Part shown: positions 44,330 to 48,671 of the stretch, in pieces
How the letters are laid out: each line of letters opens with the position of its first letter
Position numbering within the stretch: position 1 is the stretch's first letter
Source: an uncultured Alphaproteobacteria bacterium
Lineage (GTDB): Bacteria > Pseudomonadota > Alphaproteobacteria > Rs-D84 > CACZYB01
Direction of reading: 5' to 3'
NCBI GenBank assembly: GCA_944390685.1
Contig: CALXQL010000005.1
Location: forward strand, 1 to 64,000
DNA length: 64,000 bases
Notes under the pieces: generated by a model
What the model was told of the DNA's origin: nothing
The model's database searches: none
The model's input: the letters and a program-made list of their open reading frames with translations, nothing else
Program-made: the position numbers and the translations under genes

Positions 44330-44848
44330 ATGAATATTAAATTAAACGGCTTTAAAATTAAAATAATAAATATCAATAGAATGTCTAAAAAAGAAGACTC
44401 TATGGTATTCATGAATAATTTAAATAAACAAACATCTAACAATCCCGAACATTTGACATATTCAAAGGAACGTAAATTGCAACTTGCGTACGATAGTGCC
44501 TATAGTTCCATTTTCTATTCATATCAATATGATCAAAATAAAATTTCTTATATAATTGAAAGAGATATAAGCTTCAATAATTTAGGTGAAAAAGTTTTAA
44601 CCGAAGAAGAAATTGCCAAAGCAATAATCAAAGGAGTTAATGCTGCAACCACCAAATTAAACGAAACATATTTAATTTCACAAAATAAAAAGAAACCTAA
44701 ATTAAGACTTATTGCATATAATATTGATTTAGAAATTGCATTAAGTAGAGAATTGGAAAAAAATATGCCATCAAATTCCAATACCATAAATCAAACAACA
44801 TTAAATTTAAGAAATCTTCTTATTGAGAAATTACAAAAAAGAAAATAA
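44330..44848 (+). CDS. Protein of unknown function
   Basis: 172 aa, not recognised. Basic, mostly helical, Asn/Lys-rich (KERKLQLAYDSAYSSIFYSY). No signal or membrane segment. AGAGG precedes the ATG. Likely co-transcribed with the next gene, 21 nt away. Confidence 0.6.
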   Translation: MNIKLNGFKIKIININRMSKKEDSMVFMNNLNKQTSNNPEHLTYSKERKLQLAYDSAYSSIFYSYQYDQNKISYIIERDISFNNLGEKVLTEEEIAKAIIKGVNAATTKLNETYLISQNKKKPKLRLIAYNIDLEIALSRELEKNMPSNSNTINQTTLNLRNLLIEKLQKRK

Positions 44849-44869: not shown

Positions 44870-45244
44870 ATGAATATAAAAGAACATAAAATAACGATAA
44901 AACCATTTTCCAAAGGTGATGAACATATATTATATACTTTTAATAAAGAAACTAACACATTAAAGTTAGATTTAATGAAACTCTTTTTTAATATTAATGA
45001 TATAGATACTCTTACAACTCTTTCAAAGGATAATTTTTCGGTTTTTGTAACAGCTTCTTTTCTTTATGCAATTACAAATTCTTCAAATGATGAATTACAA
45101 ATATCACATTTCATTAAAGATTTATTAGAGGATACTTCATCAATTGATTTATCTAAATTAAATTTTGAAGTCATTTCATATCATAGAACATTTACAAATA
45201 ATTTTAATAAATATATTAGAGATAATTTACAAAAAACAAAATAA
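44870..45244 (+). CDS. Protein of unknown function
   Basis: 124 aa, not recognised. MNIKEHKITIKPFSKGDEHI at the start, mixed alpha/beta, soluble. The weak ribosome site and the close spacing suggest coupling to the 172-aa gene. Confidence 0.55.
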   Translation: MNIKEHKITIKPFSKGDEHILYTFNKETNTLKLDLMKLFFNINDIDTLTTLSKDNFSVFVTASFLYAITNSSNDELQISHFIKDLLEDTSSIDLSKLNFEVISYHRTFTNNFNKYIRDNLQKTK

Positions 45245-46152: not shown

Positions 46153-47061
46153 TTGAATCAAGACATTAACGAAATACAAAATCTAAATGAAGATGTTTCC
46201 ACAATTGAAGTTGAATATGAAGTTCAAGAAAATAATGATACGGAAAATATCATGATGGAAGATAACCTTTCCAACACTTCATCTACTGATAAAAATTTAA
46301 CTGAAACAAATGAAAAAAATACTACTGGTGTTGCGACTTATGTATCAATTCCTGATATAAATGACACTGCACCGAAATGTGATTATAACTTACTTACTAA
46401 TTATGATAAAGTGAATATATGGACATCATTTTTTTTCATAGTTTTTTTAATATTATTTATGAAAAGGGAAAAATTTGATAACATAATATTAAAAATAACA
46501 AAGTTCATAACAAACCATCAAATACTATTAAATTTAATATTTTTAATAACAACAATGGGGATTTTTTTATACCCAAGATTTTTCAATACCGGAATTTCTG
46601 GTGATATAAATATATTTACTATGATAGAATTTTCAATTTTCATACTTTTAAATGCAAGTTGCTTTATGTATTTAAAGATAAGAAAATTAAAAAGCAAAAA
46701 TTTTATATTAAAGGATAAGGAAGTTGATTTTGCTGGTATGTCATTTTTAAAGCGAAGTCTATGGATATTTTCCATAACTGGATTATTGTTTTTCTTTTTA
46801 ACTGAATCCAAAATTGCATTTATAATACTATATTTGTTATCAAGCCTTGCTTTAAGTTTTTCCTATATCAAACTTGATGTAAAGGGTTTGAATGCAATTA
46901 AAAACTTAAATATAATATTCCTATCATTTCAATTATTTTTAATAGGAAGCCTTCTTGGAATTTATGTATTGCTTTTAACGGGAAGCATTTTAACTGGTTA
47001 TTATTTATCAAATAAAGATAACACAAAAAAATTATATAAAATAATGAAAAGTATAATATAA
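46153..47061 (+). CDS. Integral membrane protein of unknown function
   Basis: 302 aa. The TTG start has AAGGAG upstream. The first 90 residues are acidic and Asn/Glu-rich and probably cytoplasmic. Six or more hydrophobic segments follow (IWTSFFFIVFLILFM, ILLNLIFLITTMGIFLYPRF, IIFLSFQLFLIGSLLGIYVL). No transporter or enzyme motif recognised. It lies 14 nt before the lgt-pgeF fusion gene, so the two may work together. Confidence 0.65.
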   Translation: MNQDINEIQNLNEDVSTIEVEYEVQENNDTENIMMEDNLSNTSSTDKNLTETNEKNTTGVATYVSIPDINDTAPKCDYNLLTNYDKVNIWTSFFFIVFLILFMKREKFDNIILKITKFITNHQILLNLIFLITTMGIFLYPRFFNTGISGDINIFTMIEFSIFILLNASCFMYLKIRKLKSKNFILKDKEVDFAGMSFLKRSLWIFSITGLLFFFLTESKIAFIILYLLSSLALSFSYIKLDVKGLNAIKNLNIIFLSFQLFLIGSLLGIYVLLLTGSILTGYYLSNKDNTKKLYKIMKSII

Positions 47062-47075
47062 AGGAGTTTTAAAAG

Positions 47076-48671
47076 ATGCCATTTCCAAATATATCACCTA
47101 TTGCATTTGAAATATTCGGGTTAGAAGTTCGTTGGTATGCATTGGCATATATATTTGGTTTTATGATATCGGTATCCCTTATAAAGCATTTTTTACGAAC
47201 ATCTACAAATAACACTATATCATATAAGAATTTAGATGACTTATTAACCTATATGATTTTTGGAGTTATTTTGGGTGGTCGTTTAGGTTATGTAATTTTT
47301 TATAATTTAAGATATTATTTATCAAATCCATTGGAAATAATCCAACTTTGGCATGGGGGCATGTCCTTTCATGGGGGATTATTGGGAAGCATAATAGCCA
47401 CATATTTATGGAGTAAAAAGTATAAACAAAACTTTTTATACATTACGGATTTATTAAGTATTTGTGCACCAATTGGACTATTTTTTGGACGTATATCAAA
47501 CTTCATTAACGGAGAATTATACGGCCGTATAACCACCTCTTCCCTTGGAATAATATTTCCTAACACAAATGGATTGCCACGCTACCCAAGTCAACTTTTT
47601 GAAGCATTAAGCGAAGGTTTAATTTTATTTATAATATTATTTGGGTTAAGACATATAAAGACAATAAGGAATAAATACGGAATTTTATCTTTTACATTTC
47701 TTGGTGGATATGCTATTGCCCGTATTTCAATGGAAAATTTCCGCGAACCTGATGAGCAAATAGGATTCCTATTCAATTCATCATTAACAATGGGGCAACT
47801 TTTAACTATTCCAATGTTAATTATTTCTATCATAGCCATAATAAAAATATCAAAACAAAATAAAAAAGAAGATTTATTCATCACTTCCCCTCTTTTGAAT
47901 AATAATACTAAAATAATAAATAGGTTTTTTACTCGTAATGGAGGTGTTTCAAATGGCGTTTTTCAATCATCAAATTGTAAATACGAAACAAGTGATGATA
48001 AAGATAAAGTAAGAAAAAATCGTGAAATTTTGTTATCAAGTATTTCACTTGATGCTAATAAAAGTCTATTTACATTAAATCAAAACCATACAAACGAAGT
48101 TATAATAATTGATGATCCAAACGATACCCCTAATAAATATTTGGATATAAAAGCGGATGGACTCATTACAACTATACCTAATATAGCAATAGGAATCCTA
48201 ACGGCTGATTGTATTCCAGTATTGTTAATGGATGAAGAAAAAAAGGTTATAGGGGCAATTCATTGTGGTTGGCAAGGTATCCATAAAAACATAATCAAAA
48301 CTACAATTGATAAACTAAAATCATTGAATTGTGATATTAAAAATATAAAGGTTGCACTTGGTCCATGCCTTAAAAAACAATCATACGAAGTTGATATTGA
48401 TTTTATGGAGAATATTGTAAGAGAAAAAGAAACTTATAAAAATGTATTTAAAAAACTATCTAAAAAGAATAAATACCTTTTTGATTGCACAAAATATTGT
48501 GTTATGAAATTAAAGGAAGAAGGAATTAACTATATTGATATTTTAAATTTTGATACCTATAAACAAGATGATTTATTTTTTAGTTATAGACGAAGTGTAA
48601 TTACAAAAGATTTTGCAACCTCTCCAACTGATGAAGGAAGATTGTTATCAATAATAAGTATTAAGGATTAA
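47076..48671 (+). CDS. lgt-pgeF: Fusion of prolipoprotein diacylglyceryl transferase (Lgt) and PgeF/YfiH
   Basis: One 531-codon frame holds two normally separate proteins. Residues 1-265 are Lgt, an inner-membrane enzyme that lipidates prolipoproteins: WYALAYIFGFMISVSLIKHF, LWHGGMSFHGGLLGS around 91-105, FFGRISNFINGELYGRI, RYPSQLFEALSEG and MENFREPDEQIGF. Residues 280-531 are a PgeF-type (DUF152/YfiH) enzyme that corrects wrongly built muropeptides or acts as a purine nucleoside hydrolase-like protein: RFFTRNGGVSNGVFQSSN, H338 in NQNHTN, C379 in TADCIPVLL, H396 in IHCGWQG. All three PgeF metal residues are present. AAGGAG precedes the ATG. The stop is 3 nt from the convergent lptC stop. Confidence 0.9.
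   Translation: MPFPNISPIAFEIFGLEVRWYALAYIFGFMISVSLIKHFLRTSTNNTISYKNLDDLLTYMIFGVILGGRLGYVIFYNLRYYLSNPLEIIQLWHGGMSFHGGLLGSIIATYLWSKKYKQNFLYITDLLSICAPIGLFFGRISNFINGELYGRITTSSLGIIFPNTNGLPRYPSQLFEALSEGLILFIILFGLRHIKTIRNKYGILSFTFLGGYAIARISMENFREPDEQIGFLFNSSLTMGQLLTIPMLIISIIAIIKISKQNKKEDLFITSPLLNNNTKIINRFFTRNGGVSNGVFQSSNCKYETSDDKDKVRKNREILLSSISLDANKSLFTLNQNHTNEVIIIDDPNDTPNKYLDIKADGLITTIPNIAIGILTADCIPVLLMDEEKKVIGAIHCGWQGIHKNIIKTTIDKLKSLNCDIKNIKVALGPCLKKQSYEVDIDFMENIVREKETYKNVFKKLSKKNKYLFDCTKYCVMKLKEEGINYIDILNFDTYKQDDLFFSYRRSVITKDFATSPTDEGRLLSIISIKD

What the first reader, a model, noticed from the sequence alone, without database searches (positions are those of the whole stretch)
47076..48671. Lgt and PgeF fused in one polypeptide
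An inner-membrane lipoprotein-modifying enzyme is joined in frame to a cytosolic PgeF/YfiH enzyme, with a linker of about 15-20 residues. Both halves keep their key residues (Lgt HGG and FREPD blocks; PgeF H338, C379, H396). In many alphaproteobacteria the two genes are neighbours, so fusion by loss of intergenic sequence is plausible. The result tethers PgeF to the membrane near sites of wall precursor synthesis.
Basis: seen in the sequence. Interest (0 to 1): 0.7.

Follow-up and report, generated by a model that had tools for sequence, protein, structure and literature searches.

The report
Family-wide Lgt–PgeF fusion enzyme
In one small family of tiny-genome alphaproteobacteria, a membrane enzyme that attaches lipid to lipoproteins and a soluble enzyme that proof-reads cell-wall building blocks are made as one protein; the fusion is real, old and conserved, but both halves look like ordinary working copies of known enzymes.

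Summary
Window 47076-48671 is one 531-aa ORF: a complete Lgt (PF01790, TIGR00544 above cut-off) followed by a complete PgeF/YfiH (PF02578, TIGR00726 above cut-off). It is not an assembly error. The same full-length fusion, about 530 aa with the joint in the same place, is in all six genomes of the genus and in two other genera of the family (28-62% G+C), in a shared neighbourhood. It was not found outside that family among sampled order (190), class (385) and phylum (299) genomes. Lgt and PgeF catalytic residues are invariant and both halves are under purifying selection. The genome also has MurC and LspA. First-reader corrections: in the class the two genes normally flank a Methyltransf_28 (MidA-like) gene of about 1.1 kb, a family absent from the 21 nearest genomes tested; so the fusion most plausibly followed loss of a whole middle gene. 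The true spacer is about 7-10 residues. Lgt topology and basic residues after TM7 put PgeF in the cytosol, its normal place. Most likely it is a bifunctional protein with two largely independent activities; functional coupling or enrichment near wall synthesis is untested. It is a new domain combination of known enzymes.

The parts
47060..47066 (+). Shine-Dalgarno-like AAAGGAG 9 nt before the fusion's ATG; it overlaps the stop codon of the upstream gene
   Evidence: read directly; similar purine-rich sites precede the start in several genus members
47076..48671 (+). lgt-pgeF fusion gene, 531 aa, single ORF
   Evidence: orthologous full-length fusions in seven other genomes
47076..47858 (+). 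Lgt half, residues 1-261
   Evidence: PF01790 residues 8-256, TIGR00544, phmmer to E. coli Lgt 5azb
47859..47879 (+). basic spacer, residues 262-268, between the last Lgt helix and the N-terminus of PgeF
   Evidence: hydropathy and junction; PgeF homology starts at residue 269
47880..48668 (+). PgeF/YfiH half, residues 269-531, with Q336, H338, D361, C379, H396, W399, Y504, R505, R522
   Evidence: PF02578, TIGR00726; alignment to 1xfj, 1rv9, 1u05; residue counts
46153..47061 (+). conserved membrane protein of unknown family directly upstream, likely co-transcribed (14 nt gap)
   Evidence: no Pfam or NCBIfam match; 38-51% identical orthologues in the same place in G001, G002, G003, G005

Best explanation
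A bifunctional membrane protein. The N-terminal half is a working prolipoprotein diacylglyceryl transferase in the inner membrane. The C-terminal half is a working PgeF/YfiH amidase, hung by a spacer of about 7-10 residues from the cytosolic end of the last Lgt helix, which removes UDP-MurNAc-L-Ser (and probably Gly) made in error by MurC. It arose once, in the ancestor of this alphaproteobacterial family, from a conserved lgt-midA-pgeF gene row after the middle methyltransferase gene was lost. Since then it has been kept as one reading frame. The two reactions probably run independently; the fusion mainly fixes 1:1 co-expression from one gene in a reduced genome and makes PgeF membrane-bound. 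Shown: single ORF, conservation, intact residues, presence of MurC and LspA, usual gene order in the class. Inferred: topology, both activities, absence of coupling, order of the evolutionary steps.
For: Two complete domains above curated cut-offs in one ORF. Full-length fusion in 8 of 11 genomes of the family, from 3 of 4 genera, and in no other of 190 order genomes sampled. In the class sample of 385 the only match near full-length score is the window itself; the next best covers only residues 1-266, and the phylum sample gives the same picture. Invariant residues equivalent to E. coli Lgt Y26, H103, R143, N146, R239 (Y21, H99, R139, N142, R216; Arg143 and Arg239 essential in PMC4728403) and to YfiH Q69, H71, D89, C107, H124, W127, Y227, R228, R235 (roles in PMC8844914). 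dN/dS is low in both halves (for example 0.064/1.112 and 0.107/1.153). Both halves show the same branching within the genus and the family's PgeF is monophyletic at 100/100. MurC and LspA are in the genome. Methyltransf_28 is absent from all 21 nearest genomes tested but lies between lgt and pgeF elsewhere in the class. Basic residues follow TM7 in the family members.
Against: No protein-level evidence. The fold prediction was made without an alignment and failed (pLDDT 37.8), so the interdomain geometry is unknown. One UDP-diphosphate contact, R128 of YfiH, is Gln in seven of the nine family sequences, though 3 of 31 class members also have Gln there. Family members G007 and G009 have neither domain and G010 only a contig-edge PgeF; these genomes are 70-88% complete. 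The family's Lgt clade has moderate support (73/77).
Confidence: 0.8

Rival explanations
1. The fusion has been selected for spatial or regulatory coupling: membrane-anchored PgeF edits precursors near MraY/MurG, or Lgt and PgeF activities influence each other so that lipoprotein and peptidoglycan synthesis are co-ordinated.
For: Joint and spacer length are conserved over three genera and 28-62% G+C; the fused state is kept while PgeF itself was lost in much of the order. Topology puts PgeF at the inner face of the membrane.
Against: PgeF's known substrate is soluble and made by MurC (PMC8844914). The spacer sequence itself changes faster than either domain. Re-splitting a fusion is rarely selected, so persistence alone does not show coupling.
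Confidence: 0.15
2. The ORF is fused but two proteins are made, by internal initiation at the joint or by proteolysis after TM7.
For: The window has one in-frame TTG in the joint (codon 274) and some other members have scattered start-like codons.
Against: Five of the eight members have no in-frame ATG, GTG or TTG in the joint, and the window's TTG has no Shine-Dalgarno-like sequence before it. Nothing points to a conserved protease site.
Confidence: 0.06
3. Assembly or sequencing artefact joining two separate genes.
For: All genomes are draft assemblies in many contigs.
Against: The same joint occurs in eight separate assemblies from three genera that differ strongly in sequence (42-69% identity to the window) and G+C.
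Confidence: 0.01
4. The C-terminal half no longer edits peptidoglycan but acts as a purine nucleoside phosphorylase or deaminase (a described activity of some YfiH/YlmD/FAMIN relatives).
For: Some PDB relatives are named purine nucleoside phosphorylase (7f3v, 7fbg). R128 is replaced by Gln in the genus, and HAGW is HCGW in the whole family.
Against: The Ser-specificity residue Q69 and the carboxylate-binding R235 are invariant, MurC is present, and TIGR00726 is passed above its cut-off.
Confidence: 0.08

Closest known systems
Lgt (prolipoprotein diacylglyceryl transferase; E. coli structure 5azb/5azc)
   Same: Full-length domain, essential residues kept, same expected seven-helix topology
   Different: Carries a C-terminal enzyme domain of about 263 residues in place of a short cytosolic tail
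PgeF/YfiH (UDP-MurNAc-L-Ser amidase; E. coli YfiH 7f3v/1z9t, 1xfj)
   Same: Full-length domain; catalytic triad C107-H124-D89, H71, specificity Q69 and substrate R228/R235 kept
   Different: Membrane-anchored through Lgt instead of soluble; HCGW instead of HAGW in all nine family sequences
Alphaproteobacterial lgt-(Methyltransf_28/MidA-like)-pgeF gene row, e.g. Azospirillum sp. TSH58
   Same: Same gene order lgt then pgeF on one strand
   Different: The middle gene is gone and the outer two are one reading frame
Mycobacterial Lnt-Ppm fusion (Rv2051c Ppm1 / BCG_2070c; PMC3850990)
   Same: A membrane enzyme of lipoprotein maturation fused to a second envelope-related enzyme in some species, with separate adjacent genes in others; one domain could be deleted without abolishing the other's activity
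   Different: Different enzymes (Lnt and a polyprenol-phosphate mannose synthase) and a different phylum

Membership tests
Lgt (TIGR00544 / PF01790) | Score above curated family cut-off over the full domain | tested here: met
   216.3 bits vs 118.9 and 230.4 vs 24.9
Lgt (TIGR00544 / PF01790) | Essential residues equivalent to E. coli H103, R143, R239 (also Y26, N146) | tested here: met
   H99, R139, R216, Y21, N142, invariant in eight fusions; Arg143/Arg239 essential per PMC4728403
Lgt (TIGR00544 / PF01790) | Seven membrane spans with the C-terminus in the cytosol | tested here: inconclusive
   Simple hydropathy finds most spans and basic residues after the last; no reliable structure model
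Lgt (TIGR00544 / PF01790) | Diacylglyceryl transfer activity | not testable with these tools
   Needs a complementation or enzyme assay; the next enzyme LspA is present
PgeF/YfiH (TIGR00726 / PF02578) | Score above curated cut-off over the full domain | tested here: met
   181.1 vs 141.15 and 211.7 vs 22.9 bits
PgeF/YfiH (TIGR00726 / PF02578) | Catalytic H71, D89, C107, H124 and specificity/substrate residues Q69, W127, Y227, R228, R235 | tested here: met
   All present in all nine family sequences
PgeF/YfiH (TIGR00726 / PF02578) | Diphosphate-contacting Arg128 (seen in the E. coli structure; not diagnostic of the family) | tested here: inconclusive
   Gln in the window and six other family sequences, Arg in one, Lys in one; the class sample has Arg 12, Lys 16, Gln 3, so the position varies among ordinary members
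PgeF/YfiH (TIGR00726 / PF02578) | Substrate source: MurC in the same genome | tested here: met
   TIGR01082 456 bits vs 335.1, G000:C6
PgeF/YfiH (TIGR00726 / PF02578) | UDP-MurNAc-L-Ser amidase activity | not testable with these tools
   Needs an enzyme assay

The most novel reading that the evidence does not exclude
Membrane anchoring of PgeF to Lgt is functional: the fusion places wall-precursor proof-reading at the inner membrane face and links lipoprotein acylation and peptidoglycan editing in one selected unit.
Probability: 0.15. Interest if true: 0.6.

Novelty: new variant of a known kind. Interest (0 to 1): 0.36.

Why it matters
It appears to be a new domain combination of two well-known envelope enzymes: no paper with both names was found in the open-access library, though protein-architecture databases were not on hand. 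It is a clean marker of one bacterial family and an example of gene fusion after loss of a middle gene during genome reduction. If the anchoring is functional, it would be a first hint that cytosolic peptidoglycan editing benefits from a place at the membrane, which can be tested with E. coli chimeras.

Tried and rejected
Assembly error: rejected by eight independent assemblies. Direct adjacency as the usual state in the class: rejected, 37 of 37 loci have a gap of 868-1332 nt. Internal start for PgeF: no conserved start codon in the joint. Fusion elsewhere in the class or phylum: none in the samples. The search for related loci in genome contigs gave only a distant Woesearchaeota-MAG Lgt. The 16S gene was not found in the assembly, so the taxon was placed only at class level: the Azospirillum PgeF sits next to a genome of the window's class in the tree. 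Literature searches for the pair found no paper.

Full report
What is there. The ORF at 47076-48671 (+) starts with ATG behind AAAGGAG and codes for 531 aa without interruption. Residues 8-256 match Pfam LGT (E 2.5e-68) and residues 285-508 match Cu-oxidase_4, the PgeF family (E 1.4e-62). Both NCBIfam equivalog models, TIGR00544 lgt and TIGR00726 PgeF, score above their curated cut-offs. By phmmer the first half aligns to E. coli Lgt (5azb) and the second to solved PgeF proteins (1xfj, 1rv9, 1u05, 7f3v).

Not an artefact. The window's genome has 929 kb in 25 contigs and a single PgeF. Every one of the five other genomes of the genus, plus one genome from each of two further genera of the family, carries the same fusion at 528-553 aa. 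Identity to the window runs from 42 to 69% and regional G+C from about 0.28 to 0.62. The three remaining family genomes are incomplete (70-88%): G007 and G009 have neither domain, and in G010 the contig begins just at the joint. No family genome has the two as separate genes.

Neighbourhood. In G001, G002, G003 and G005 the fusion is preceded by the same unnamed membrane protein (window 46153-47061; 38-51% identical) and, beyond it, a divergent TrmN-like methyltransferase; the methyltransferase also lies close by in G006 and G008. Downstream lie convergent genes for LptC and a SIS/CBS protein (KdsD-like).

Distribution. With a profile of eight fusions, the only full-length matches in 190 genomes of the order are the eight family members. 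In 385 class genomes (drawn evenly) the window scores 967 bits; the next best is 366 bits and covers only residues 1-266, that is Lgt alone. The phylum sample of 299 is the same. These are samples, and other phyla were not searched.

Origin. PgeF is present in 266 of 289 class genomes but in only 13 of 59 nearest relatives. In all 37 class loci where both genes were visible, lgt lies upstream of pgeF on the same strand with 868-1332 nt between them. The gap holds a Methyltransf_28 gene (the MidA/NDUFAF7 type; that name is from general knowledge) in eight of ten scanned loci and a DUF2062 gene in two loci of one family. Azospirillum sp. TSH58 is annotated lgt - SAM-dependent methyltransferase - pgeF. 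Methyltransf_28 was found in none of the 21 nearest genomes. The simplest history is loss of the middle gene, apposition of lgt and pgeF, and in-frame fusion in the ancestor of the family, while other families of the order lost pgeF or hold it elsewhere. The PgeF tree makes the family one clade (100/100) and the genus members branch the same way in the PgeF and Lgt trees, as expected for one fused unit inherited vertically. The Azospirillum PgeF falls beside a genome of the window's class, which places the window in the Alphaproteobacteria.

Function. E. coli Lgt R143 and R239 are essential (PMC4728403); their equivalents R139 and R216, with Y21, H99 and N142, are invariant in the fusions. YfiH uses the triad C107-H124-D89 with H71, recognises L-Ser by Q69 and its carboxylate by R235, and binds UDP-MurNAc with W127, R128, Y227 and R228 (PMC8844914). 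All but R128 are kept in all nine family sequences; R128 is Gln in seven, and Gln also occurs in 3 of 31 class members. A family-specific change is HCGW in place of HAGW. dN/dS is well below 1 in both halves, for example 0.064/1.112 and 0.107/1.153 between L006 and L007. MurC and LspA are in the genome, so both pathways have their partner enzymes.

Topology and joint. The last hydrophobic span ends near residue 257-261 and is followed by basic residues. The cytosolic face of E. coli Lgt is strongly positive (PMC4728403), so the C-terminus is expected in the cytosol, where YfiH works (PMC8844914). Homology to PgeF begins at residue 269, so the spacer is about 7-10 residues. Five of eight members have no possible ATG, GTG or TTG start codon in the joint and the window's only TTG lacks a ribosome-binding site, so separate translation of PgeF is unlikely.

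Reading. The best account is a bifunctional protein with two working and largely independent enzymes, fixed by gene loss and fusion in a reduced genome. A precedent is the Lnt-Ppm fusion of slow-growing mycobacteria, whose parts are separate neighbours in M. smegmatis and where deleting the Lnt domain left Ppm activity (PMC3850990). That the anchoring itself is useful is possible but untested; I give it 0.15.

Limits. No structure of the fusion could be modelled. No expression data exist here. Protein-architecture databases were not available, so 'not previously described' rests on two empty full-text searches and the genome samples.

Noticed in passing
window 46153-47061 (+): Conserved membrane protein without a Pfam or NCBIfam match, just upstream of the fusion in the genus (38-51% identity), 14 nt apart in the window; a candidate partner of envelope enzymes.
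   Followed up: partly
L084 2878-4446 (G003): A CptA-like phosphoethanolamine transferase gene sits between lptC and the fusion in this genome; in G000, G001, G002 and G005 the two genes are directly convergent.
   Followed up: partly
window residue 397 (48264-48266) and all family PgeF sequences: HAGW motif of PgeF is HCGW in all nine family sequences, Ala or Ser in all 31 class and 4 other order sequences: a family signature next to the catalytic His.
   Followed up: partly
order relatives G014-G058 (family f5): PgeF is missing from nearly all genomes of the large family f5 although they keep Lgt; loss of peptidoglycan editing on a wide scale.
   Followed up: no
L024 and L041 (class family f78): Between lgt and pgeF a DUF2062 gene stands in place of the usual Methyltransf_28 gene.
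   Followed up: no
L014 3001-3747: A MAG labelled Woesearchaeota carries a bacterial-type Lgt (34% identity); contamination or transfer.
   Followed up: no
window 44330-44848 and 44870-45244 (+): Two ORFs (172 and 124 aa) after rpoZ without any NCBIfam match.
   Followed up: no
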